Shown here in pieces: positions 302 to 38,805 of a stretch of DNA of 64,000 bases. The position numbers were made by a program, and so were the translations under genes. Numbering within the stretch: position 1 is the stretch's first letter; each line of letters opens with the position of its first letter. The notes beneath the pieces are model-generated. The model was not told where the DNA came from. It saw nothing but the letters and a program-made list of their open reading frames with translations, and made no database searches. The DNA comes from Chloroflexota bacterium (GTDB lineage Bacteria > Chloroflexota > Anaerolineae > Anaerolineales > Villigracilaceae), in NCBI GenBank assembly GCA_016213105.1, contig JACRBN010000026.1, positions 682,001 to 746,000 on the forward strand. The letters are read 5' to 3'.

Positions 302-1075
302 ATGGATTTACAGTTATCAGGAAAAGTAGCCATCGTCACAGGCGCAAGCCGCGGAATTGGACGCGCCCTCGCTGAGACGCTCTCCGCCGAGGGCATGCGT
401 CTCGTCCTTGCCGCGCGCTCACGCGAAGCATTGGAATCCCTCTCCGCTGCGCTGCCGACCGAGAGCCTGGTCCAGGCCATCGACCTGCGCCTGCCCGAGT
501 CGGCGGGACTCGTCGTCCAGGCGGCGCTCGAACGCTTTGGTCAGATCGACCTGCTGGTCAATAACGCAGGCGCCACCCAGCGCGGCGACTTCCTCACGCT
601 GACCGACGATCAATGGGCCGAGGGCTATGCCCTGAAATTCTTCGGCGCCATGAGATTGTGCCGCGCCGCGTGGACTCACCTGCAAGTCCGCCGCGGGAGC
701 ATCGTCAACATCATCGGCATCGGCGGGCGGACAGGCAGCGCCGAGTTCGCCATCGGCGGCACGGTCAACGCCGCGCTGATGAACCTGACCAAGGTCCTCG
801 CCGACCGCGGCATCCAGGACGGCGTGCGCGTCAACGCGGTCAACCCCGGCTCGATCGCCACCGAAAGACTGCAAGTCCGCATCCGCGCGTTGATGCAGGA
901 AAAGAACCTCAGCGAAGAGCAATCCACACGCCAGATGGCATCCAAACTGGGTATCGCCCGCTTCGGCCAGCCTGCGGAAATCGCCCGCGCCGTGGCCTAC
1001 CTCGCCTCCCCACAGGCGGAGTACATTCAAGGCGCGATTCTGGATGTGGATGGCGGGGCGACAAGGACGTTGTGA
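302..1075 (+). CDS. SDR-family protein with a degenerate active site
   Basis: A 257-aa Rossmann-fold protein of the short-chain dehydrogenase family. The start at 302 is preferred over an in-frame ATG at 272 because GGAGG (293-297) lies just upstream and the family core begins at once. Visible motifs are the nucleotide-binding TGASRGIG (residues 13-20), NNAG (87-90) and a C-terminal DVDGG. The catalytic Ser-Tyr-Lys triad seems absent: where SDRs have Ser, then YxxxK, this protein reads IIGIGG and then GGTVNAALMNLTK, so Tyr aligns with Gly and Lys with Asn. The cofactor probably still binds, but ordinary carbonyl/alcohol redox chemistry is doubtful. It stands alone, transcribed away from the ATPase terminator. 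The substrate is unknown. Confidence 0.8.
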   Translation: MDLQLSGKVAIVTGASRGIGRALAETLSAEGMRLVLAARSREALESLSAALPTESLVQAIDLRLPESAGLVVQAALERFGQIDLLVNNAGATQRGDFLTLTDDQWAEGYALKFFGAMRLCRAAWTHLQVRRGSIVNIIGIGGRTGSAEFAIGGTVNAALMNLTKVLADRGIQDGVRVNAVNPGSIATERLQVRIRALMQEKNLSEEQSTRQMASKLGIARFGQPAEIARAVAYLASPQAEYIQGAILDVDGGATRTL

Positions 1076-27765: not shown

Positions 27766-27853
27766 GGAGGGATGACCGAGCGGCCGAAGGTGCTTGTCTT
27801 GAAAACAAGTTAGGGTCACACCTACGTGGGTTCGAATCCCACTCCCTCCGCCA
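27766..27853 (+). tRNA. tRNA-Ser, anticodon TGA
   Basis: Acceptor GGAGGGA (27766-27772) pairs with TCCCTCC (27843-27849). The anticodon loop is CTTGAAAA with TGA, a long class-II variable arm follows, the T-loop is GGGTTCGAATCCC, the discriminator is G and CCA is encoded (27851-27853). Reads UCA and related serine codons. Confidence 0.96.
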
Positions 27854-27945
27854 GCCGATTTACAATTGATGATTTACGATTGATGCTTTTCGATTTACAA
27901 TTGCAACTCGAAAATCGTCAGTCTTGGATCGAAAAAGATTGAACT

Positions 27946-28035
27946 GGGGAGGTGCCAGAGTGGCTGAATGGGCTCGCCTGCTAAGTGAGTGCCGGGGTAA
28001 CTCGGTCGCGGGTTCGAATCCCGCCCTCCCCGCCA
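27946..28035 (+). tRNA. tRNA-Ser, anticodon GCT
   Basis: Acceptor GGGGAGG (27946-27952) pairs with CCTCCCC (28025-28031). The anticodon stem is CTCGC/GTGAG with loop CTGCTAA (GCT). A long variable arm, T-loop GGGTTCGAATCCC, discriminator G and encoded CCA follow. Reads AGC/AGU serine codons. Confidence 0.96.
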
Positions 28036-28249: not shown

Positions 28250-28468
28250 ATGGCCGTGCTTGGACAGTTCTCGCACCATGACCCCGAACGCAGAGGCGGT
28301 TTGCCCGGGTTGACGAGATTGCCATCAGGGAGTGGGGATGTTTCGCCCATGCGCCAAATCGATTCTCAAAATCAGTCCTGCCATGATCTTTCCAAATCGA
28401 ATCGTTGCAAGCCCGGCCGCAGGTTGAGATCGTTTTTATCAGGAGACCAAATTGACAGAATTTGCTGA
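28250..28468 (+). CDS. Possible small protein upstream of the conflict operon
   Basis: A 72-codon open frame from ATG 28250, one base after GGAGGTAGG (28241-28249), to TGA 28466-28468, overlapping the start of the CHAT-SIR2 gene by 17 bases. The sequence is polar and basic, with Cys residues at the end (HDLSKSNRCKPGRRLRSFLS), and has no recognisable domain. The strong ribosome site and overlap suggest a leader peptide or coupled small gene, but it could be chance. It is the only coding candidate in 28036-28451. Confidence 0.3.
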   Translation: MAVLGQFSHHDPERRGGLPGLTRLPSGSGDVSPMRQIDSQNQSCHDLSKSNRCKPGRRLRSFLSGDQIDRIC

Positions 28469-30512
28469 TCTCGAACTGGGTCTGCACCAGCGTGAAGCAG
28501 GCTTGTTCACGGTCGAAATGCGTTACAGCCAACCCAACAGCGACGCGGATATTCGTGTCGGGCAGGGACATCCCATCGCGGTGCAGTTCAATTTCCAGGA
28601 ACTGTTGATGAAGATTGTCGACCCGGCCGCCTATGGCGCGATGTTGACCCAATCTCTCTTCGCTGACAAGGATCTGCTGGCGGCTTTCTCGAAGGCGCGC
28701 GCCAGCGCCCAGACCGGCCAGTCGCCGTTGCGCATCCGCCTGATCATCGGGCCGAGTGCGCCCGAACTGAACGGCCTGTTTTGGGAAACCCTGCGCGACC
28801 CGGAGAACGACAAGGCCACCCTGTTCACGGGCGAGCAGGTCTACTTCTCACGCTACCTCAGCAGCCTGGACTGGCGTCCCGTCAAACTGCGCTCGAAGGG
28901 CAGCCTCAAGGTGTTGGTGGCCGTGGCCAACCCGGGCGGATTGGACCAGTACTCGCTGGCGCCCGTGGATGTGCCCGCTGAGCTGGCCCGCGCCCAGGCG
29001 GCGCTCAAGGATATTCCCGTCATGGCGCTGCCCTCCAAGCCTGAAGAGCGCTGTACCCTGCAGGGCATCATCGACCATTTACGCGCGGGCTGCGATATTC
29101 TCTATCTTGCGGCGCATGGTTCCTTCGTCAAGGAGGAGCCCTGGCTGTGGCTGGAGGATGAGCAGGGCGGGGTGGCGCGCGTCTCGGGCTATGACCTGGT
29201 CACGCGTATTCGCGAACTGGATGTGCAGCCGCGCCTGGTCGTGTTGGCCTCCTGTCAGAGTGCGGGTAAAGGCGCGGGGGCGGCGCTGCAGGCCCTCGGT
29301 CCGAAACTGGCGGAGGGCGGCGTGCCCGCCGTGGTCGCCATGCAGGGCAACATCAGCATGGATTCGGTCGCGCGTTTCATGCCCGTCTTCTTTTCCGAAC
29401 TGCAACAGGATGGTCAGGTGGATCGCGCCATGTCGGTGGCGCGCGGCGTGGTGCGGGATGCCTCCGATTTCTGGATGCCCGTCCTGTTCATGCGCCTGCG
29501 CAGCGGCCGCGTCTGGTACACGCCCGGCTTTGGCGGGGAGGCCGATTTCAAGAAGTGGCCCTCGCTGTTGACCAGCCTGCAAGTGGGCAAGTGTACCCCC
29601 ATCATCGGCGCGGGTCTGTATGAGGCCCTGCTGGGTTCGTGGCGCGACCTGGCCCTCAGCCTGGCGGAAAAGTATCGCTATCCGCTGGCGCATTTCTATC
29701 GCGATGCGCTCCCGCAGGTGACGCAATTCCTTTCGGTCGACCAGTCTGCCAGCACGCTGCTGCTCGAATTGGAGAACGTCATTCGCGAGCGTGTCCAGAA
29801 TCGCCTGGCCGCCGACCTGCCCGATACCTTGAAAGGGGCGCAGGCGTCGCTCATCGACCTGATCTCGTTTGGCGGGCAGAAACTGCGCTCGGTCGATGAA
29901 CTGGAACAGCACCGCGTGCTGGCCGGCTTGAAGCTGCCCATTTACGTCACCACCAACTACGACAACATGATGACCGATGCGCTCAAGGAGGCGGGTGTCG
30001 ACCCACAGATGGTCATCTGCCCCTGGAGTGAACGTTTCAGCGCGAGCTCCATTTACGACAAGGAACCCGAGTATCGCCCCAGCGCGGAGCGGCCGCTCGT
30101 GTATCATCTCTTCGGACATTTCAGCGTGCCCGATTCCCTGGTGCTGACCGAGGACGACTACTTCGAATTCCTGATCGGCGTGACCAGCAACAAGGATCTG
30201 ATCCCCACGGTGGTGCGGCGGGCCCTTACCGATACCGCGCTGATGTTCCTGGGCTTCCAGCTCGATGACTGGGCCTTTCGCATTTTCTTCCGCTCGATCA
30301 TGGACCTGCAGGGAGGCGGACGGCGCAGCAAGTATGCCCACATTGCCGTGCAGGTCGACCCCGATGAAATCCGCAACTACGATCCGCGCCGCGCGCGCGA
30401 ATATCTCGAGGATTACTTCGAAGACGACTCGATCAGCATCTATTGGGGTCAGTCGGCGGATTTCATTCGTGAGCTGGTGGCGCAGCGAACCGCGAATGGG
30501 AAGGAGAGTTGA
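28452..30512 (+). CDS. CHAT protease fused to SIR2-like domain
   Basis: A 686-aa protein; TTG 28452 is the only start in frame after a stop at 28425, with AGGAG six bases upstream. Residues 1-140 are an N-terminal region. Residues about 150-345 form a CHAT (caspase-HetF) peptidase domain with the catalytic dyad H222 (LAAHGSF) and C268 (VLASCQSA). Residues about 375-675 form a SIR2-like domain: IIGAGLYEALLGSW (385 on), TTNYDNMM with N502 and D504, and LVYHLFGHF...VLTEDDYFEF. Such SIR2 domains in defence proteins are NADases. Where many have HG, this one has FG, with H552 and H556 as neighbours, so activity needs testing. It lies two bases upstream of the nSTAND gene. Confidence 0.88.
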   Translation: MTEFADLELGLHQREAGLFTVEMRYSQPNSDADIRVGQGHPIAVQFNFQELLMKIVDPAAYGAMLTQSLFADKDLLAAFSKARASAQTGQSPLRIRLIIGPSAPELNGLFWETLRDPENDKATLFTGEQVYFSRYLSSLDWRPVKLRSKGSLKVLVAVANPGGLDQYSLAPVDVPAELARAQAALKDIPVMALPSKPEERCTLQGIIDHLRAGCDILYLAAHGSFVKEEPWLWLEDEQGGVARVSGYDLVTRIRELDVQPRLVVLASCQSAGKGAGAALQALGPKLAEGGVPAVVAMQGNISMDSVARFMPVFFSELQQDGQVDRAMSVARGVVRDASDFWMPVLFMRLRSGRVWYTPGFGGEADFKKWPSLLTSLQVGKCTPIIGAGLYEALLGSWRDLALSLAEKYRYPLAHFYRDALPQVTQFLSVDQSASTLLLELENVIRERVQNRLAADLPDTLKGAQASLIDLISFGGQKLRSVDELEQHRVLAGLKLPIYVTTNYDNMMTDALKEAGVDPQMVICPWSERFSASSIYDKEPEYRPSAERPLVYHLFGHFSVPDSLVLTEDDYFEFLIGVTSNKDLIPTVVRRALTDTALMFLGFQLDDWAFRIFFRSIMDLQGGGRRSKYAHIAVQVDPDEIRNYDPRRAREYLEDYFEDDSISIYWGQSADFIRELVAQRTANGKES

Positions 30513-30514
30513 GC

Positions 30515-33500
30515 ATGGTATCTTCCAACAGCCAGTTACGTGCCGGTTCCAATCCCTACGTGGGTCCGCGCTCCTTCATCACCGGCGAGACGATCTACGG
30601 CCGTTCGCGCGAAGGCGCCGAATTGCTGGACCTGCTGATCGCCGAGCGCATTGTCCTGCTCCATTCCCCTTCGGGTGCGGGCAAGAGTTCGCTGATCAAT
30701 GCCAGCCTCGTCCCGCAAATGCGTGAGCAGGGCTTCTGGACCCTGCGTACGGTGCGCGTGAACATGGATCCGCCCGATGGGTTTGCCGAAAAGCCGGGTT
30801 TTAATCGTTACTCCTTTAGCGTCCTGCGTTCCCTGGAAGGGGAATTCCCCGCCCGCGAGCAGCACTCCCCGAAGGAACTGGCAGGCATGACCCTGCCGCA
30901 GTACATGCAGGCATATCCTGAACGCGGCGTGCAGCACATCAAGAATTTCGACCCGGATGCCTCGCGTTTCATTATCTTCGATCAGTTCGAGGAGTTGGTG
31001 CGCGTCAGCGCCGTGGACCGCGATGCCAAGATCGAGTTCTTCAACCAGGTCGGCGAGATGCTCAGGGATCGCAACCTGTGGGCCCTGTTCGCCCTGCGCG
31101 AGGATTACCTGGCGGCCATCGAGCCGTATACGCGCCCGATCCCCAACCGCCTGACCGTCACCTACCGCCTCGATTTCCTGGATGCGCGTTCGGCCATCGA
31201 AGCCATCCAAAACCCCGCACGGGACAGCGGCGTGGAGTTCGAGGATGCGGCCGCCTCCCGCCTGGTGGATGACCTGCGCCGCATCCGCGTCCAGCAAACG
31301 GACGGCACCGCCCTCGAACAGCTTGGCCTGTACGTCGAGCCGGTGCAGTTGCAGGTGGTTTGCCGCCGCCTGTGGGCCACGCTGGGGGGCCGCAAGACAC
31401 TCACCGTGGATGACGTGGCCAAGGCGGGCAATATCGACGACGCCCTGGGCGATTATTACGCCTTCCATGTCAGCAGTGTGGCCGCCAGCTCGAACGTGAG
31501 CGAGCGCCAGGTGCGCGAGTGGTTCGACCGTAAACTCATCACCGTGAACGGCATCCGCGGCCAGGTGCTGATGGAGCCGGACGCCAGCGGGGGACTCCCG
31601 AACCCGACCATCAAGGCCCTGCAGGAAGCCTATCTCGTCCGCGCGGATAAACGCGGCAACGCGGTGTGGTTCGAGCTGGCCCACGACCGCCTCACGCGTC
31701 CCATTCGGCGCAACAATGCCGCCTGGTTCGTCGAGAACCTGAACGTCTTCCAGCGCCAGGCCGACCTGTGGAACAACCAGGGCCGCCCCGATTCGCTCCT
31801 GCTGCACGGCAACGCCTACCTCGACGCGGTGGAGTGGTCCAAGGCTCACGCCGAAAGCCTCCAGCCGGCCGAACAGGAATTCCTGGATGCCTGCCGCAGC
31901 GAGTATCTGACCAGCCAGCGCGAACGCCGCACGAATCTGCTCATTCGCTGGGCGGCGGTGCTCATGGCCGTCCTGACCGTGGCCGCGATCTTTTTCTTCT
32001 TCCAGGCCCAGGCCGAGGCGGCCCGCGCCACCCAGGAGGAGGTCAAGGCCAACGCGGAAGCCGAACGCGCCAACCAGCAGGAGGCCAAGGCCAAGGCGCA
32101 GGAGGCCATCGCCAAGGAACAGGAAGCCCTGGCTTATCAAAAGGAACAGATCGCCAACATCAACCTGCAGATCGCCCAGTTGCGCGAGCTGGCCGCCAAG
32201 TCGGTCAGCAACCTGACGGTCGACCCCGAGTTGAGCATCCGCCTGGCCTTGCAGGCCATTCAGGGCGTCGACCTGACGCAGCCCGAAATGGAGGGCGCCA
32301 TCAACCAGGCGGAGGATGCCCTGCGCCAGGCATTACCCGCCATGCGTGCGGAACACGTTCTGCGCGACCCGCTCATTTCCAGCACCGATTCCTTCACCCA
32401 CTCGGGAACGGTCTGGGGCGCCTCCTTCAGCCTGAGCGGACAGCGGCTTGCCACAGTGGGCAGTGACGGCACGCTCAAGATCTGGGATACGATCACCGGC
32501 CATCTGTTGCGCACCATCACCGTGCTTGCGCCCACTCAAGGTGACTATGGCGTGACCAACGTGATCTTCAGCCCGAACGGCAAGCAGCTTGCGGCCGCGA
32601 CCGGCGACGGCCGCGTCCTGTTGTATGACGCCACCACCTGGGGGCTGATCGACTCCCGCCAGGTGCAGGAGGGAGTCGTCTGGGGGCTGGCCTTCAGCCC
32701 GGACAGCACGCTCCTGGTGAGCGGCGGCGAGAAGGGTGTGGCGGTCGTGTGGCGTTTGGCCGATAATGTCATTCAACCCCTGCTGGGCGGCCACAGCGGC
32801 GACATTCAGTCCGTGGCCTTCAGCCCCGATGGAACGCGCATCGCCACCGCGGGTTCGGACTCGCTCGCCATCGTGTGGGACGCCGGCACGCGCCGTCCGC
32901 TTCACCGCCTGGAGGGTCATACCGGCTACGTCAACAGCGTGGCCTTCAGCCCTGACGGCAAACGCCTGGCGACGGCCGGCGAGGATCGCGCCATCATCCT
33001 GTGGGACATCAGTGTCCCCGCCGCGCCCCAGTCGCTGGTTATCACTGGTCACCGGGATTGGATCTACGCCGTGGCCTTCACCCGCGACGGTTCGAATCTC
33101 ATCTCCGTCAGCGCCGACCGCACCATCCGTTTTTGGGACACGACCTACGGGCGTCCGGGCTTTGTGCTGGTCGGCCACAAGGATCAGATCTACAACCTGG
33201 CCCTCAGCACGGATGGCAAACGCATTGCCACGAGCAGCAAGGACAATACCGTGCGCCTGTGGAACATCGCGCCCGAAGGCAGCCGTGAGATGATCACGTT
33301 CGATAATCACGCCATCGTGTACGATATTGCCGTCAGCCCGGATGGGACCCGACTGGTCGGCGCGGGCGGCGACAGCATCCTGCGGGTGTGGGATACCGTC
33401 TCGGGACGCATGGTCACCCCCATCCAGACCGGGCATAGCGGCATCGTGGACGGCGTTGCATTCAGCCCCGACGGGAGTCTCATCGCCACCTGCGGCCGCG

Positions 33501-35110
33501 ACGGCACGGCCCGCATCTGGAATATTTCCAAAGGCGTCGAACAGCTTGTCTTCGAGCAGCATCAAAGCCCGTTGTCGGCCATCGACTTCGGCCCGGACGG
33601 CAGGAGCGTGGCCAGCGGCGGAAAGGATGGAACCGTCAAGGTCTGGGACGCCGAAACGGGCGCAACTTCCCTGGACCTGGTTTCCGAGTGGGGCGCGGTC
33701 TTTTCGCTGAAATTCAGCCCCAATGGCTCCATCCTGGCCGTGGGGTATGAAGACCAGGTCATCGTGCTGTGGGATGCAAAGAGCGGCGCCCGCCAGGCCG
33801 TCCTCGCCGGCCATACCGACATCGTTCAAACCGTGACCTTCGACCCGGATGGAAAGTGGCTGGCTTCGAGTGGGGACGACGGCAGCATCATCCTTTGGGA
33901 TATGGACCCGGACCGCCTGGGTGAGCCGCAGGCGCCCATGCGTGGACGCGGAGATACCATCTTCAGCCTGGCCTTCAGCGCCGACGGGAAATTCCTGTAC
34001 AGCGGCGGCGCCGATGGCGTCGGCATCCTGTGGAACCTGGAGGACCGCACCACGGAATTCCAAACCTACGGGCACACCGACCGCATCTACGCGGTCAACG
34101 TCAACCCGAACGGGAAATACCTGTACAGCGCCGGGCGTGACGGCACGGTGCGCGCCTTTGTCTTCGGCCTGGAGGAATTGATCACCCTGGCCGGTCAGCG
34201 CACCACCCGCGAGTTCACCGAGGAGGAGTGCCGCCAGTACCTGAATGCGGCCTGCCCGACCGACTCGGGCGCGCCGGTGGTCGACCCGCCCGGACCTTCC
34301 GCGGCTGCGCTCAAACGCCCGGGCGAAGCGCCCATCGCGGCCGACAGCCAGATGAATGACATCGACTCCTCGTCTTCTGCCAGCGAGCTGCGCGCCGTGG
34401 GCGGCGACGAGTTCGACCTCAATTTGTTCGAGCGTCCGTTCAACGGCGGCGAGATGAACATTTACTACCCGGACGTGGACATCATCCACGCCTCCTCCGC
34501 GGAGGACAAGGACTGGTTGTATTTCTCGATCACCCTGGCCGGGCCGCGCGGGGATGGGTTGTACGGCAATTACGGCATCGAGCTTGACCTGGATGCAGAC
34601 GGCCGCGGCGATTACTTCGTCTCCACCCTGACGCCCGGCAAGGAATGGTCCACCAGCGGCGTGCGCATCTGGTTCGACAAGAACGGCGACGTCGGCAACG
34701 CCATTGCCTACGTGTCCGATCCGCCGCAGGAGGGGAACGGCTACGAGGTCCTGGTGTTCGACCAGGGCACCGGTGACGCCCCCGACCTGGCCTGGGCGCG
34801 CGTCGATCCGCTCGACGCGAATCGCGTCCAGATTGCATTCCAGCGCGGCGTCATCGCCAGCGACCCGGTCTATGCCTGGCTGGCCTGGGCCAGCCGCGAC
34901 CCGTTCAAACCGGCCTGGTTCGATTACAACGATCATTTCACGCTCGAGCAGGCGGGTTCGCCGCTGAGATTTTTGACCAGGTATTATCCGCTCAAGGACC
35001 TGGCGGGTGTGGATAACACCTGCCACGCCCCGGTCGGATTTACCGCCCCCGGGCAGGCGGTCTTCTGCCAGCCCGACCGCGCCAAGAACAACAATTCGAC
35101 TGCACCATGA
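30515..35110 (+). CDS. nSTAND NTPase with membrane span, coiled coil and 14 WD40 repeats
   Basis: A 1531-aa protein starting at ATG 30515 behind AAGGAG. Residues 12-30 have NPYVGPRSF, typical before nSTAND P-loops. Walker A is SPSGAGKSS (51-59), Walker B RFIIFDQFEE (151-160), and a winged-helix-like region runs to about 460. One membrane helix lies at 475-497, then an Ala/Glu/Lys-rich coiled coil to about 560. Fourteen WD40 repeats (about 620-1235, each with F-S-P-D-G and W-D/N motifs) make two seven-bladed propellers. The last ~260 residues form an unrecognised domain with a DLDADGRGDYF metal-binding-like loop. Expected to be an NTP-driven switch; the propellers would sense the trigger. By simple topology the propellers lie across the membrane from the NTPase. 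Confidence 0.9.
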   Translation: MVSSNSQLRAGSNPYVGPRSFITGETIYGRSREGAELLDLLIAERIVLLHSPSGAGKSSLINASLVPQMREQGFWTLRTVRVNMDPPDGFAEKPGFNRYSFSVLRSLEGEFPAREQHSPKELAGMTLPQYMQAYPERGVQHIKNFDPDASRFIIFDQFEELVRVSAVDRDAKIEFFNQVGEMLRDRNLWALFALREDYLAAIEPYTRPIPNRLTVTYRLDFLDARSAIEAIQNPARDSGVEFEDAAASRLVDDLRRIRVQQTDGTALEQLGLYVEPVQLQVVCRRLWATLGGRKTLTVDDVAKAGNIDDALGDYYAFHVSSVAASSNVSERQVREWFDRKLITVNGIRGQVLMEPDASGGLPNPTIKALQEAYLVRADKRGNAVWFELAHDRLTRPIRRNNAAWFVENLNVFQRQADLWNNQGRPDSLLLHGNAYLDAVEWSKAHAESLQPAEQEFLDACRSEYLTSQRERRTNLLIRWAAVLMAVLTVAAIFFFFQAQAEAARATQEEVKANAEAERANQQEAKAKAQEAIAKEQEALAYQKEQIANINLQIAQLRELAAKSVSNLTVDPELSIRLALQAIQGVDLTQPEMEGAINQAEDALRQALPAMRAEHVLRDPLISSTDSFTHSGTVWGASFSLSGQRLATVGSDGTLKIWDTITGHLLRTITVLAPTQGDYGVTNVIFSPNGKQLAAATGDGRVLLYDATTWGLIDSRQVQEGVVWGLAFSPDSTLLVSGGEKGVAVVWRLADNVIQPLLGGHSGDIQSVAFSPDGTRIATAGSDSLAIVWDAGTRRPLHRLEGHTGYVNSVAFSPDGKRLATAGEDRAIILWDISVPAAPQSLVITGHRDWIYAVAFTRDGSNLISVSADRTIRFWDTTYGRPGFVLVGHKDQIYNLALSTDGKRIATSSKDNTVRLWNIAPEGSREMITFDNHAIVYDIAVSPDGTRLVGAGGDSILRVWDTVSGRMVTPIQTGHSGIVDGVAFSPDGSLIATCGRDGTARIWNISKGVEQLVFEQHQSPLSAIDFGPDGRSVASGGKDGTVKVWDAETGATSLDLVSEWGAVFSLKFSPNGSILAVGYEDQVIVLWDAKSGARQAVLAGHTDIVQTVTFDPDGKWLASSGDDGSIILWDMDPDRLGEPQAPMRGRGDTIFSLAFSADGKFLYSGGADGVGILWNLEDRTTEFQTYGHTDRIYAVNVNPNGKYLYSAGRDGTVRAFVFGLEELITLAGQRTTREFTEEECRQYLNAACPTDSGAPVVDPPGPSAAALKRPGEAPIAADSQMNDIDSSSSASELRAVGGDEFDLNLFERPFNGGEMNIYYPDVDIIHASSAEDKDWLYFSITLAGPRGDGLYGNYGIELDLDADGRGDYFVSTLTPGKEWSTSGVRIWFDKNGDVGNAIAYVSDPPQEGNGYEVLVFDQGTGDAPDLAWARVDPLDANRVQIAFQRGVIASDPVYAWLAWASRDPFKPAWFDYNDHFTLEQAGSPLRFLTRYYPLKDLAGVDNTCHAPVGFTAPGQAVFCQPDRAKNNNSTAP

Positions 35111-35126: not shown

Positions 35127-36563
35127 ATGAGCGAGGAACTGTTTTTCAACGGTATCGATGCGACCACGGGGGAGTATCTCATTCCGCCCGTGGCGCCGGA
35201 GACCATGGCGGCCGCCATCAGCGGCCAGCCGCGCGACCCGGCTGAGGCGCAGGCGTTGAAGGATTGGTGGAGCAAGTACGCCGATACGAACAAGGAAAAG
35301 ATCGTGGACATGACCGCCAAGGAGGGCACCGATTACCTCGACCTGTCCTCCGCGGGCTGGGGCGTCATCTTCCCCCACAATGTCGATCCCACCATCGTCA
35401 AGGCGCTCAGGCCGCTGCTCGACTGGCGCAAATCGCAGGCGGGCAAACGCTACCATGAATATACCGGCAGCGAAGGCTATCGATTCAAGCCGAACGAAAA
35501 GTACGAAACCAAGGATGAATGGCTCGTCCGCCACGGCGCGGGCCCGGGCCCTGTCGACCCCGATATTGTGCCCTACTACATGCTCCTGGTGGGCGACCCC
35601 GAGCAGATCCCCTACAACTTCCAGATCCAGTTGGATGTTCAGCATGCGGTCGGCAGGATCTTTTTCGACAAGCCCGAGGATTACTGGAATTACGCCAACA
35701 GTGTGGTCAGCGCCGAGAAGAAGAAGCTGTCGCTCGGCAGGACGGCCGCCTTCTTCGGCGTTGCGAACCATGACGATGTGGCCACCAACATGAGCGCCGA
35801 ACAACTTGTCAAGCCCCTGGCCGCCTCCTTCGCGAAGGAAGCGGGCTGGAAGATCGGGAAGATGGCCGCCGAGAAGGCCACCAAGTCCGACCTGTCCAAC
35901 GTGTTGGGTGGAAAGGATACTCCCGCTCTGTTGTTTGCCGCCAGCCACGGCATGGGTTTCCCCAACGGCGATGCCTTGCAGCTCAACAACCAGGGCGCCC
36001 TGCTTTGCCAGGATTGGCCCGGGCCCAAGGAATGGCGCAAGCCCATCGGCAAGGATTTTTATTTTGCCGCAGACGACCTGGCGGACAATGCCAACGTCTT
36101 CGGCCTGGTGGCGTTCTTCTTCGCCTGTTATGGCGCGGGCACGCCCAAACTGGACGAGTTCTCGAAGCAGGCCTTCAAACGGCGCGGCGAGATCGCCCCG
36201 AAGAACTTCATCGCCAAACTGCCCCAACGCTTGTTATCCCATCCCAGGGGCGGCGCGCTGGCGGTCATCGGCCACGTGGAGCGCGCCTGGGGCTACTCCT
36301 TCACCTGGGGCAAGGCCGGCCCGCAGCTGGCTGTCTTCGAGTCGGCGATCAAACGACTGTTCGACGGCTGGCCGGTCGGATATGCCTTCGAGTATTTCAA
36401 CGGCCGCTATGCCGAGCTCGCCTCTGAACTGGCCTACACCCTGGGCGAGATGGAGTACGACTTAAAGGTCGCGCCCACCGATCTGGCGGGCATGTGGACC
36501 GCCACCAACGACGCCCGCAACTACGTGGTGCTGGGCGATCCCTTTGTAAAACTGATGGCTTGA
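35127..36563 (+). CDS. Caspase-fold (C25/gingipain-like) cysteine peptidase-like protein
   Basis: A 478-aa soluble protein, 16 bases after the nSTAND gene, with a ribosome site GGAGAGG. The caspase-fold layout is visible: VPYYMLLVGDPEQIPYNFQ (148 on), where peptidase C25-like proteins have LVGD, then the His strand LLFAASHGMGF (H274), and the Cys strand LVAFFFACYGAGTP (C334). H and C are 60 residues apart, as in the CHAT/caspase class. GALAVIGHVERAWGYSF follows as the strand after the dyad, and YVVLGDPFVKL ends it. It is a likely protease effector or processing enzyme of the operon, distinct from the CHAT domain of the first gene. Confidence 0.75.
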   Translation: MSEELFFNGIDATTGEYLIPPVAPETMAAAISGQPRDPAEAQALKDWWSKYADTNKEKIVDMTAKEGTDYLDLSSAGWGVIFPHNVDPTIVKALRPLLDWRKSQAGKRYHEYTGSEGYRFKPNEKYETKDEWLVRHGAGPGPVDPDIVPYYMLLVGDPEQIPYNFQIQLDVQHAVGRIFFDKPEDYWNYANSVVSAEKKKLSLGRTAAFFGVANHDDVATNMSAEQLVKPLAASFAKEAGWKIGKMAAEKATKSDLSNVLGGKDTPALLFAASHGMGFPNGDALQLNNQGALLCQDWPGPKEWRKPIGKDFYFAADDLADNANVFGLVAFFFACYGAGTPKLDEFSKQAFKRRGEIAPKNFIAKLPQRLLSHPRGGALAVIGHVERAWGYSFTWGKAGPQLAVFESAIKRLFDGWPVGYAFEYFNGRYAELASELAYTLGEMEYDLKVAPTDLAGMWTATNDARNYVVLGDPFVKLMA

Positions 36564-36577
36564 GAAAGGATTGCGAT

Positions 36578-37093
36578 ATGAGCAAACCCCGTCCCACTGC
36601 GGATATCCCGGCAATGCCCGATTTCTCGAAGGATGAAACGCCCGTTCCCTCCGCGCCCGAGCCTGCTCCCGTGCCCCAGGCCGAGTCTGCGCCGGTGGCC
36701 AACTACGGCTGGTTCGACGCCGAAAGCCAGGGCAAGCTGGCCGATTCCACCCAGAATTTCATCCAGAAATTGGGCAGCTTCCTGAGTAAGGCGCTCGATG
36801 ACGCCCTGACCCTTGACGTGCGCACCTACGTCAGCGAGGACATCGGCTCGGTCACCTACGACAAGGAAAAGTCAGAGTTGGTGGGCAGCGTCCAACTGCG
36901 CGCCATGACCTACGTCAAGATCGATGGCGATACCCTGGTGTGCGTGCCCGAAACCGACGGCGAGCTCGACACCGCCGTATGGGCCGTCCACATGGATATG
37001 GTCAACCAGGCTCGCGAGAGCCGCGCCGAGTTGATGAAAGCCATCGTCTCCACGGCGGGCAGCCTGGCGAGTGTCTTCACGCCGAAATCCTGA
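36578..37093 (+). CDS. Small operon protein, paralogue of the 37906 gene product
   Basis: A 171-aa protein; AAAGGA precedes ATG 36578, 14 bases after the peptidase gene. Residues 1-45 are a Pro/Ala/Glu-rich unstructured tail. Residues about 50-160 form a compact domain: helix FIQKLGSFLSKALDDAL, strand VRTYVSEDIGSVTYD, strand LRAMTYVKIDGDTLVCVP, and a final helix HMDMVNQARESRAELMKAIV. The same order appears in the 105-aa product of the gene at 37906 (VETSYVELGAASFDG, ARTEINLDGDSKNVIP, VHQQNVSAAIEYRTKMMNSL). No known family recognised. It may be an adaptor that links sensor and effector. Confidence 0.65.
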   Translation: MSKPRPTADIPAMPDFSKDETPVPSAPEPAPVPQAESAPVANYGWFDAESQGKLADSTQNFIQKLGSFLSKALDDALTLDVRTYVSEDIGSVTYDKEKSELVGSVQLRAMTYVKIDGDTLVCVPETDGELDTAVWAVHMDMVNQARESRAELMKAIVSTAGSLASVFTPKS

Positions 37094-37103
37094 ACCATCC
37101 AGC

Positions 37104-37913
37104 ATGCCTGCGATCTTCGAACTTACCCTTCCTGAGGAAGAACCCATCGGCCTGGTCGGCCCGTGGGAGTCGCAGGCTGCGCCCGTCTCGTATGCGCTGG
37201 GGGAGGCGGAGGCAGATCCCGCCGCGCCCGTCTGGAAGGTGAGCCTGCCCGCCGACCCGTTCGAAGCGGAGCAGGCCCTGGCCCAGGCCGAAGCGCAGGT
37301 CGCCGAGGCGGAGTCTGCGCTCGCGACCGTCCCCGCCCGCCTGGACGCGCTCACCGCGTCCGCGCCGCGTGGGGCGGCGGTCTCGTTCGAGGTGGTCTCC
37401 TACGGCTTCGAAGCGGAGACCCCTGAGGCGGAGATGTTCAGCCTGCTCGAACAGGCGCGTCAATTGGAGCAGGGACGCGGGGTGGAGTCCTATGCCATTG
37501 GCGACGCGGCCTATGCGGCCTGGGAGCAGGCGCGTATCCAGTTCGAGACCTTCACCGGCCAGCTCCAGCGCGAGGTGATGCACTTTGCCTGGGTCGAAAC
37601 CAACGTCGCAGGCCACCTCCTGGCGCGGACGACCGTCGGCTGGAGCGGCGATAGCGATACCGTCTGGCTGGTGGATCTGGATGCACAGCAGATCGCGCTG
37701 CATCGGCGTTCGCTGCAAGTGGCCGTCAAGACGCGCGCGCTGCGTATGCGCATGTTCTCCACGGTGACGGGCGGCGCCGCGAAATTATCCATGTTGTTAA
37801 CCACCCCAGCGGGAGCCTTGTTGGCCCTGCCCGCGGCGTGGAAGTATGTAACCGAAATTCTTGCTTTGATCAAAACCCATCAAAACCTGACCCAAGGAGA
37901 GACTCATGGCTAG
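37104..37913 (+). CDS. Operon protein with coiled coil and C-terminal membrane segment
   Basis: A 269-aa protein, ATG 37104, ten bases after the preceding stop and without a clear ribosome site, so probably translationally coupled. An Ala/Glu-rich helix (AEQALAQAEAQVAEAESALA, residues about 64-83) precedes a mixed domain with VSFEVVSYGFEAETPEAEMF and VETNVAGHLLARTTVGWSGD. The C-terminal part has a hydrophobic stretch KLSMLLTTPAGALLALPAAW (about 232-251), which may be a membrane anchor. No family recognised. Its stop overlaps the next gene by eight bases. Confidence 0.6.
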   Translation: MPAIFELTLPEEEPIGLVGPWESQAAPVSYALGEAEADPAAPVWKVSLPADPFEAEQALAQAEAQVAEAESALATVPARLDALTASAPRGAAVSFEVVSYGFEAETPEAEMFSLLEQARQLEQGRGVESYAIGDAAYAAWEQARIQFETFTGQLQREVMHFAWVETNVAGHLLARTTVGWSGDSDTVWLVDLDAQQIALHRRSLQVAVKTRALRMRMFSTVTGGAAKLSMLLTTPAGALLALPAAWKYVTEILALIKTHQNLTQGETHG

Positions 37914-38223
37914 TGAATTGCGCGAAGCGATCAAGACCTCGGCAAACCGCATTGCGGAGTACGTGAAAGACGTTTCCCAGATGGTCGTCGAAACCTCCTA
38001 CGTGGAGCTCGGCGCGGCCTCGTTCGATGGGGCCAAACTGGCGGCGCGCACCGAGATCAACCTGGACGGCGACAGCAAGAACGTCATCCCGATGCAGCAG
38101 GGCGAGTCCAAGCTCGAAGTGGACATGGCTGTTTTCGAGGTACACCAGCAGAACGTGTCGGCCGCCATCGAGTACCGCACCAAGATGATGAACTCGCTCC
38201 TGAGCCTGCTGCGCGGGGAGTAG
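37906..38223 (+). CDS. Small operon protein related to the 36578 gene product
   Basis: A 105-aa protein; ATG 37906 overlaps the upstream gene and is preceded by AAGGAGAG. It is all domain: helix ELREAIKTSANRIAEYVKDV, two strands (TSYVELGAASFDG, LAARTEINLDGDS), then SKLEVDMAVFEVHQQNVSAA and a closing helix. The order matches residues about 50-165 of the 36578 product by eye. It is the last gene of the six-gene cluster, followed by a strong hairpin. Function unknown; it has some general likeness to the small trypsin-co-occurring domains described in conflict systems, not enough to assign. Confidence 0.6.
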   Translation: MASELREAIKTSANRIAEYVKDVSQMVVETSYVELGAASFDGAKLAARTEINLDGDSKNVIPMQQGESKLEVDMAVFEVHQQNVSAAIEYRTKMMNSLLSLLRGE

Positions 38224-38463: not shown

Positions 38464-38805
38464 ATGGATCAAAAGCAATTCGACGAAGTCTGCAAGCAGT
38501 TACGCGACCGAAAGGATGACCTGCGTCCCACGGACGTGAATGTCTTCCCCGAGCCGCTGCTTTCCACCCTGCATTATGCGCTGCGGGTGGGACGCATTTC
38601 CTTTTCAGAGCTTATGAAGCGGCTGGATGTCAAACCCGAGCAGGCGCGCGCGTTGGCCGACCTGCTGGTCAAACGCAACCTGTTCCAGATCTCGGCGTTT
38701 TCCCAGACGGACGATGTCTTTTACGAGACCCGTTTGTCCACCTCGACCCGCCCGCTGATGCGCCCCAAATTGGGGGTGTGGAAGAATACAGACGAAGGCA
38801 AATGA
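38464..38805 (+). CDS. Small winged-helix-like protein
   Basis: A 113-aa protein; ATG 38464 is chosen because conserved-looking sequence starts there. Residues about 30-80 look like a winged helix: LLSTLHYALRVGRISFSELM, then KRLDVKPEQARALADLLVKR and the turn NLFQISAF, a pattern shared with MarR/PadR-like and effector-associated wHTH domains. The N-terminus is charged. It follows the conflict operon by 240 bases under its own promoter and is closed by a terminator. It might regulate the operon or be unrelated. Confidence 0.6.
   Translation: MDQKQFDEVCKQLRDRKDDLRPTDVNVFPEPLLSTLHYALRVGRISFSELMKRLDVKPEQARALADLLVKRNLFQISAFSQTDDVFYETRLSTSTRPLMRPKLGVWKNTDEGK

What the first reader, a model, noticed from the sequence alone, without database searches (positions are those of the whole stretch)
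30515..35110. nSTAND NTPase whose WD40 sensor is predicted to face outside the cell
The 1531-aa protein has a single clear hydrophobic helix (residues 475-497) between the NTPase and the coiled coil plus 14 WD40 repeats. With the NTPase in the cytoplasm, the propellers and the C-terminal domain with a DxDxDG-like loop would lie outside. That suggests detection of an extracellular or surface signal rather than an intracellular phage product. Fourteen repeats would make two full seven-bladed propellers.
Basis: partly seen in the sequence, partly recalled or inferred. Interest (0 to 1): 0.6.

Follow-up and report, generated by a model that had tools for sequence, protein, structure and literature searches.

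The report
Bacterial death-switch with outward-facing sensor
This gene encodes a membrane-anchored molecular switch, distantly like the proteins that trigger cell death in animals, whose sensing end very probably sticks out of the bacterial cell while its likely effector partners sit inside.

Summary
The ORF at 30515-35110 encodes 1531 aa: an nSTAND1 NTPase (aa 14-395), one strong hydrophobic helix (475-497), a helical linker, 14 WD40 repeats and a C-terminal domain with a conserved D-x3-DG loop. The outward topology is well supported by comparison. All 13 free-standing homologues of the C-terminal domain that I examined look like lipoproteins (11 by rule, 2 by eye). The helix recurs in 31 of 33 family ORFs, with more K/R on the NTPase side in 30 of 31 and no second helix at KD 1.8. 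Cysteines after the helix cluster in close pairs in most, not all, relatives. AlphaFold models the repeats as propellers.

The gene lies in a conserved cluster: CHAT-SIR2 protein / nSTAND1-TM-WD40 / C25-like peptidase, plus small genes; the three main genes co-occur across 249 genomes of the class. Best reading: an outward-facing STAND receptor that gates cytoplasmic caspase-like and SIR2 effectors. Orientation is very likely; ligand, clustering and a death or defence output are inferred. A helix after the NTPase is usual for nSTAND1 proteins of the phylum (20 of 21 tested), so the helix alone is ordinary. The papers searched did not describe this operon. New variant of a known kind.

The parts
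28452..30512 (+). CHAT-SIR2 protein (686 aa, TTG start), first gene of the conserved cluster; predicted cytoplasmic protease plus SIR2 (NAD-binding, possibly NADase) effector
   Evidence: PF12770 aa 79-337 96.3 bits, PF13289 aa 497-655 88.1 bits; CHAT H222 and C268 in 15 of 15 aligned, SIR2 H552 in 11 of 15 (catalytic roles recalled); best 19-residue hydrophobic window only 1.04
30515..35110 (+). nSTAND1-TM-WD40 receptor-like protein, 1531 aa (the finding)
30554..31699 (+). nSTAND1 NTPase domain (aa 14-395), Walker A SGAGKSS at aa 53-59, acidic motif FDQFEE
   Evidence: Walker A in 28 of 29 aligned (the other gapped there), D156/E159/E160 in 29 of 29
31937..32005 (+). single predicted transmembrane helix (aa 475-497), positive flank upstream
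32006..32284 (+). charged helical, probably coiled-coil stretch after the helix (about aa 498-590)
   Evidence: read from the sequence; extent approximate, no coiled-coil program run
32387..34186 (+). 14 WD40 repeats (aa 625-1224), modelled as propellers, predicted extracytoplasmic
34187..35107 (+). C-terminal domain (aa 1225-1531), beta-sandwich with lipoprotein-like relatives; Cys pairs 1239/1247 and 1503/1518; D-x3-DG loop aa 1358-1363
35127..36563 (+). Peptidase C25-like protein (caspase-type fold as recalled), 478 aa, no signal-like N-terminus
   Evidence: PF01364 29.3 bits, cut-off 23; H274 and C334 in 14 of 14 aligned; N-terminus shown
36578..37093 (+). g4, 171 aa, carries a small domain also found fused to the C-terminus of C25 relatives
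37104..37913 (+). g5, 269 aa, no Pfam match, relatives in L003 and L082; a hydrophobic stretch near its C-terminus (KD 1.54; 1.96 in L082)
37906..38223 (+). g6, 105 aa, same small domain as g4
38464..38805 (+). g7, 113 aa, doubtful member: a relative lies in L003 at 17500, about 1.8 kb beyond g6

Best explanation
The protein is a single-pass, N-in/C-out membrane receptor of the STAND class. Outside, two WD40 propellers and a lipoprotein-type beta-sandwich domain bind an extracellular, cell-wall or cell-surface ligand. Binding is relayed through the linker and the single helix to the cytoplasmic nSTAND1 NTPase, which switches nucleotide state and clusters. The cluster recruits or activates the co-encoded cytoplasmic effectors: the CHAT-SIR2 protein (caspase-like protease joined to a SIR2 domain) and the C25-like peptidase, probably with the g4/g6 domain as adaptor. 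The likely output is proteolysis with or without NAD depletion, ending in dormancy or death of the cell. Shown by computation: domains, single helix, charge bias, lipoprotein-like family of the C-terminal domain, Cys pairing, operon conservation, conserved active-site residues. Inferred: ligand binding, clustering, effector activation, adaptor role, death outcome.
For: Topology. Free-standing C-terminal-domain homologues are lipoprotein-like in 13 of 13 (11 by an automatic rule; 2 by eye, a proline breaking the rule). The same rule finds 0 of 21 CHAT-SIR2 and 0 of 13 C25 relatives, and 16 of 278 mechanical ORFs of 300 aa or more in the same loci, 11 of the 16 being these homologues. A 14th homologue lies in a 1819-aa ORF, open at the contig end, with a signal-like stretch near its N-terminus and an SdrD_B domain. 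Helix in 31 of 33 family ORFs; K/R in the 15 residues before it exceed those after in 30 of 31 (Wilcoxon P 7e-7); no later helix at KD 1.8 or more in the 31. Of 156 Cys after the helix 90 have another within 15 residues, 34 expected; before the helix 16 of 89, 12 of them in the foreign part of a chimeric contig. C1503/C1518 in 15 of 15. Operon: of 249 class genomes 35 have the NTPase, 31 the C25, 27 the CHAT-SIR2; NTPase with C25 25 (P 7e-21), NTPase with CHAT-SIR2 26 (P 1e-26), all three 22. L003 keeps six genes in order at 71-83% identity. CHAT and C25 His/Cys pairs are kept in 15 of 15 and 14 of 14 aligned.
Against: No experiment. The close-Cys pattern fails in the Desulfobacteraceae-type relatives (L005 0 of 12 close, L004 2 of 9) and is absent in several others with few Cys. 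Five of 23 tails have no Cys and one has a single Cys. The relatives are not independent, so P values are overstated. Six of the 31 helix-bearing ORFs are cut at a contig end, so a later helix could be missed there. L008's helix candidate scores only 1.24, and L006|9 has the opposite charge bias (2 before, 3 after). The SIR2 His is replaced by Cys in 4 of 15 aligned relatives, so NAD hydrolysis may not be general. No ligand, clustering or killing has been shown.
Confidence: 0.6

Rival explanations
1. Outward-facing receptor with a non-lethal output: it senses wall state, surface contact or a nutrient and controls cytoplasmic proteolysis for development or envelope maintenance, not immunity or death.
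For: The C-terminal model has middling matches to carbohydrate-binding CBM9-like modules and to a glucodextranase C-terminal module. In PMC2853523 most domains added to cyanobacterial caspase-family proteins, WD40 included, are called signal-transduction domains (passages). PADLOC matches were limited to the SIR2 part of the first gene (ThsA, LmuA, PDC-S25, PDC-S65) and one WD40-driven model for the second; the other five proteins had none.
Against: A SIR2 domain and two caspase-type peptidases beside a STAND NTPase are usual parts of predicted conflict systems (family knowledge, and passages of PMC8195603). The system is patchy: 0 of 12 other sampled genomes of the same family have the NTPase at E 1e-30, more like a mobile locus than housekeeping.
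Confidence: 0.25
2. Cytoplasmic sensor: the helix only tethers the protein or is a buried soluble helix, and the propellers face the cytoplasm and sense phage products as Avs proteins do.
For: The experimentally known bacterial STAND defence sensors that I recall act in the cytoplasm, and WD40 domains are mostly cytosolic. One paper predicts the nSTAND1-FGE targets of DGR 6 to be likely cytoplasmic (PMC10907252).
Against: Lipoprotein-like family of the C-terminal domain, charge bias in 30 of 31 and no return helix seen, Cys pairs.
Confidence: 0.06
3. The helix itself is the effector: NTP-driven clustering turns the single helices into a membrane pore, and the proteases process or limit it.
For: A clustered single-pass helix could perturb the membrane; the helix is conserved across the family.
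Against: It looks like an ordinary signal anchor with charged flanks, and separate predicted effectors with conserved active sites are encoded alongside.
Confidence: 0.08

Closest known systems
nSTAND1 NTPases (PF20703; clade named in PMC8195603, passages seen)
   Same: Same NTPase family by profile. In a phylum sample, 20 of 21 nSTAND1 frames with a recognised Walker A carry a helix after the NTPase; the 21 include this protein and its paralogue, so 19 of 20 without it.
   Different: The passages seen place nSTAND1 in conflict systems and do not mention an outward WD40 sensor; effectors here are separate CHAT-SIR2 and C25 genes.
DGR-diversified STAND sensors of Thiohalocapsa (PMC10907252, passages and section 14 seen)
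   Same: STAND NTPase with a C-terminal sensor; one NACHT target was predicted to be periplasmic, so outward STAND sensors have been proposed before.
   Different: There the sensor is a lectin fold diversified by a reverse transcriptase; here WD40 propellers plus a lipoprotein-type domain, and a different operon.
APAF-1 apoptosome (from a passage of PMC7159879)
   Same: STAND NTPase with C-terminal WD40 sensor leading to a caspase cascade.
   Different: APAF-1 belongs to the AP-ATPase clade and senses cytochrome c inside the cell; here a membrane helix separates switch and sensor.
Cyanobacterial caspase-family proteins with 14 WD40 repeats (PMC2853523, passages seen)
   Same: Caspase-type protease linked to WD40 repeats, often 14; two of these proteins also have NACHT (with 13 and 15 repeats).
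   Different: There fused in one chain; here separate genes with an nSTAND1 NTPase and a membrane helix.
Highly repetitive WD40 double propeller (PDB 2ymu)
   Same: 560 of 577 residues align with the 14-repeat model.
   Different: Relative orientation of the propellers differs (13.7 A rmsd); its context was not examined.

Membership tests
nSTAND1 (PF20703) | Profile match above the curated cut-off, with Walker A | tested here: met
   103.3 bits against 27.1, aa 14-395; SGAGKSS at aa 53-59
WD40 repeat protein | Repeated PF00400 units that close propellers | tested here: met
   14 stretches; modelled as propellers
Single-pass N-in/C-out membrane protein | One helix, positive-inside flank, exported C-terminal part | tested here: met
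   By prediction and comparison only
Single-pass N-in/C-out membrane protein | Experimental topology | not testable with these tools
   Needs reporter fusions or cysteine labelling
APAF-1-type AP-ATPase (NB-ARC) protein | NB-ARC profile match | tested here: not met
   No NB-ARC among Pfam matches of the NTPase region at E up to 1; nSTAND1 instead
Known anti-phage STAND systems (Avs and others) | Match of the NTPase protein to a STAND model of PADLOC | tested here: not met
   Only a WD40-driven HEAT-ARM_XIII match for this protein (library of 2023)
Known anti-phage STAND systems (Avs and others) | Protection against phage | not testable with these tools
   Needs plaque assays
Peptidase family C25 | Profile match and catalytic His/Cys | tested here: met
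   29.3 bits against 23; H274/C334 in 14 of 14 aligned (roles recalled)
Gingipain-type secreted C25 (as recalled) | Signal peptide | tested here: not met
   First 45 residues have no hydrophobic run; best 19-residue window lies at aa 324
CBM9/DOMON-like beta-sandwich (C-terminal domain) | Fold match standing clear of unrelated folds | tested here: inconclusive
   1ug9 C-terminal module Z 9.9, Sas6 9.4, 2ivf_C 8.8, 4jpq_B 8.6, 1i82 CBM9 7.8, but nanobodies reach 8.2; Foldseek best E 0.025; no Pfam match below E 0.06 in 15 members

The most novel reading that the evidence does not exclude
A bacterial death receptor: a transmembrane counterpart of the apoptosome in which an external ligand, read by extracellular WD40 propellers, is converted by a STAND NTPase across one helix into activation of two caspase-type proteases and a SIR2 domain inside the cell. 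Modules after the helix are exchanged in relatives (14 or 21 WD40 repeats, FGE-sulfatase, further domains behind proline/threonine-rich linkers), so this would be a whole class of outward-looking bacterial STAND receptors.
Probability: 0.4. Interest if true: 0.82.

Novelty: new variant of a known kind. Interest (0 to 1): 0.6.

Why it matters
Bacterial STAND proteins are mostly studied as cytoplasmic alarms for phage that is already inside. If this family reads the outside of the cell, bacteria have receptor-triggered suicide or proteolytic signalling comparable in layout to an animal death receptor joined to an apoptosome, and the search for ligands should turn to cell walls, neighbours and adsorbing phage. 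The lipoprotein-type C-terminal domain and the conserved cysteine pairs make the topology testable with simple fusions in laboratory strains.

Tried and rejected
Identity of the C-terminal domain: Pfam, NCBIfam and PDB sequence search (best E 0.27) gave nothing usable; fold search gave only middling CBM9-like matches mixed with immunoglobulin folds. PDB sequence search of the NTPase: nothing better than E 0.15. g4, g5 and g6 had no Pfam or NCBIfam match of weight. The long ecto model left the C-terminal domain unresolved (pLDDT under 50 for its last 283 residues), hence the separate model.

Soluble-helix and cytoplasmic-sensor readings were considered and rejected as told above. In one search the signal-peptide rule also flagged two ORFs in L004 and one 100-aa ORF overlapping the NTPase end in L077; I do not count these as operon partners (the first looks from its N-terminus like a transport receptor, recalled and not tested; the others are unclear gene calls). 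L007 (Lysobacterales MAG) was kept in the counts although its first ~390 residues are an amino acid kinase (PF00696) joined to the NTPase at query residue 387, probably a chimeric contig; 12 of its 13 pre-helix cysteines lie at aa 11-122 in that foreign part. In one search, 4 of 27 rows were dropped (3 open at the 3' end, 1 with few repeats). In one search, 7 of 28 loci showed no Walker A in a long frame and were not tested; one of the 20 positives (L120) has two hydrophobic segments. Searches scored only a few candidates per genome (at most 4 to 6), so their match lists are lower bounds.

Not-in-print statements rest on paper searches (open-licence PMC only; no bioRxiv library); two searches returned mostly unrelated papers, and one search listed 12 of 21. 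What I saw of papers: search listings with the start of abstracts; passages by term search of PMC8195603, PMC10907252, PMC5587647, PMC7159879 and PMC2853523; section 14 of PMC10907252; abstract and outline of PMC7159879. None was read whole.

Full report
What is there. The ORF at 30515-35110 encodes 1531 aa: nSTAND1 NTPase (aa 14-395), a single hydrophobic helix (best window 475-493, KD 2.34; next best anywhere in the protein 1.37), a charged helical stretch, 14 WD40 repeats and a 307-aa C-terminal part without Pfam match. It is the second gene of a tight cluster on the + strand: CHAT-SIR2 (28452-30512), this gene, a C25-like peptidase (35127-36563), g4, g5 and g6.

Is the sensor outside? The strongest evidence is the C-terminal domain. 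A search of 249 genomes of the class found it in 8 genomes, 15 places. Apart from this protein and its near relatives L003 and L007, 14 homologous ORFs were examined. Thirteen are 339-385 aa free-standing proteins with a hydrophobic run and a lipobox-type cysteine near the start; 11 pass an automatic rule, and the other two (L086|23, L088) carry a proline in the window and were accepted by eye. The same rule finds 0 of 21 CHAT-SIR2 and 0 of 13 C25 relatives, and 16 of 278 mechanical ORFs of at least 300 aa in the same loci, 11 of which are these homologues. The 14th is part of a 1819-aa ORF, open at the contig end, with a signal-like stretch near its N-terminus and an SdrD_B domain. The domain keeps two invariant cysteines (C1503, C1518 here) and the D-x3-DG-x-GD loop in all or nearly all of 15 aligned sequences.

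The helix is a family trait. Of 33 NTPase-family ORFs (32 relatives plus the target), 31 have the helix after the NTPase. The two without are a 146-aa contig-edge fragment that stops before it, and L008, a fragment whose candidate scores only 1.24. K+R in the 15 residues before the helix exceed those after it in 30 of 31 (exception L006|9), Wilcoxon P 7e-7. None of the 31 has a later helix at KD 1.8 or more; L073 has one segment of 1.54 in its WD40 region; 6 of the 31 are open at a contig end. After the helix 90 of 156 cysteines have another within 15 residues against 34 expected from shuffled positions; before it 16 of 89, 12 of which lie in the foreign part of the chimeric L007. The tail after the last propeller has exactly two cysteines in 17 of 23 proteins, none in 5 and one in 1. 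The Desulfobacteraceae-type relatives do not follow the close-pair pattern (L005 0 of 12, L004 2 of 9). In three relatives' loci an apparently exported protein is encoded just downstream of an NTPase gene: L067 (lipoprotein-like, overlapping by about 10 bases), L068 (532 aa with PPC domains) and two in L069; competing frames make some of these gene calls uncertain. The relatives are not independent samples, so the P values are guides only.

Is this helix unusual? No. In a sample of 121 genomes of the phylum 28 nSTAND1 matches were listed. Of the 28 loci, 21 showed a Walker A in a long frame, and 20 of these 21 carry a hydrophobic helix after the NTPase; the 21 include the target and its paralogue, and the other 7 were not tested. 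So a helix behind nSTAND1 is usual in this phylum. What follows it varies among relatives: WD40, FGE-sulfatase (L074, L079), 21 WD40 repeats (L004, L005), proline/threonine-rich linkers with a further domain (L064-L067, L072).

Structure. With 23 aligned ectodomains the WD40 part is modelled with confidence (ten-residue block means mostly 72-97, one at 47) and shows 54 strands of three or more residues where 14 blades would need 56; the C-terminal domain was not resolved there. The second propeller superposes on a seven-bladed bacterial WD40 structure (5yzv, 288 residues, 1.3 A, Z 46.7), and the double propeller 2ymu aligns over 560 of 577 residues with 13.7 A rmsd. The C-terminal domain alone (pLDDT 69) is a beta-sandwich whose best matches are a glucodextranase C-terminal module, a starch-adherence protein, an ethylbenzene dehydrogenase subunit and carbohydrate-binding proteins, at Z 7.8-9.9, close to the nanobody background of about 8; this is suggestive only.

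The operon. Among 249 class genomes the NTPase is found in 35 (E 1e-30), the C25-like protein in 31 (1e-20) and the CHAT-SIR2 protein in 27 (1e-40). NTPase with C25: 25 genomes, P 7e-21; NTPase with CHAT-SIR2: 26, P 1e-26; all three: 22. Of 20 regions fetched around the best NTPase hits, 13 have a two-domain CHAT-SIR2 relative on the same strand directly or within about 1.1 kb upstream of an NTPase gene, and 4 more have a relative of the SIR2 half there; the other 3 are short contigs or contig ends. In L003 the six genes are kept in order at 71-83% identity. CHAT His/Cys are kept in 15 of 15 aligned and C25 His/Cys in 14 of 14; the SIR2 His in 11 of 15 (relatives covering at least 70% of the query). 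None of the five partner proteins in the window has its most hydrophobic window at the N-terminus; g5 has a moderately hydrophobic stretch near its C-terminus. The family is patchy: 0 of 12 other sampled genomes of the same taxonomic family have the NTPase at E 1e-30, while 6 of these 12 have the lipoprotein-like C-terminal-domain homologues. The closest relative in a named collection is a Chloroflexi MAG (L003), so the host is probably a Chloroflexota bacterium (inference).

How it most likely works. An external ligand binds the propellers or the C-terminal domain; the signal crosses one helix; the NTPase switches and clusters; the cytoplasmic proteases and the SIR2 domain are activated. The anatomy up to the orientation is supported; everything after that is inference from the known behaviour of STAND proteins, CHAT/C25 peptidases and SIR2 effectors. 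The full conservation of the two protease His/Cys pairs compared with the looser SIR2 His suggests that proteolysis is the essential output.

Known or new. The nSTAND1 clade and STAND conflict systems are known (PMC8195603, PMC7159879, passages). A periplasmic STAND sensor has been predicted for a DGR target (PMC10907252). Caspase-family proteins with 14 WD40 repeats are known in cyanobacteria (PMC2853523). I found no description of the CHAT-SIR2 / nSTAND1-TM-WD40 / C25 operon or of outward WD40 sensors on STAND proteins in the searches, which cover open-licence papers only. I therefore call it a new variant of a known kind.

Noticed in passing
window 36578-37093 and 37906-38223: g4 and g6 share a small domain that in L005, L008 and L082 is fused to the C-terminus of the C25-like peptidase; it may be an adaptor domain, and it matched no Pfam family in g4 and only noise in g6.
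   Followed up: partly
L007:6831-11102: The Lysobacterales MAG contig joins an amino acid kinase (PF00696) to the nSTAND protein at query residue 387, probably a chimeric assembly.
   Followed up: yes
L084-L095: A lipoprotein-like family in genomes of the window's own taxonomic family shares the C-terminal domain; the window's own genome has one too (G000:C28:14535-15317).
   Followed up: yes
L074:4381-6921 and L079:7502-10174: Relatives carry an FGE-sulfatase domain after the membrane helix instead of WD40, so FGE-type sensors on nSTAND1 proteins may also face outside.
   Followed up: partly
L067:10256-10978, L068:17369-18967, L069:6382-7143, L069:12904-14448: Signal-peptide or lipoprotein-like ORFs directly downstream of the NTPase gene in relatives; possible external partners, some gene calls uncertain.
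   Followed up: partly
L097:4579-9450 (G000:C2:330578-335449): A second large nSTAND1-TM-WD40 protein in the same genome, 1623 aa, with about 390 aa before the NTPase and a helix of KD 3.06.
   Followed up: partly
window 27766-28035: Two tRNA-Ser genes lie just upstream of the operon; the upstream neighbourhood seems to differ from that of L003, so the locus may have been inserted near the tRNAs.
   Followed up: no
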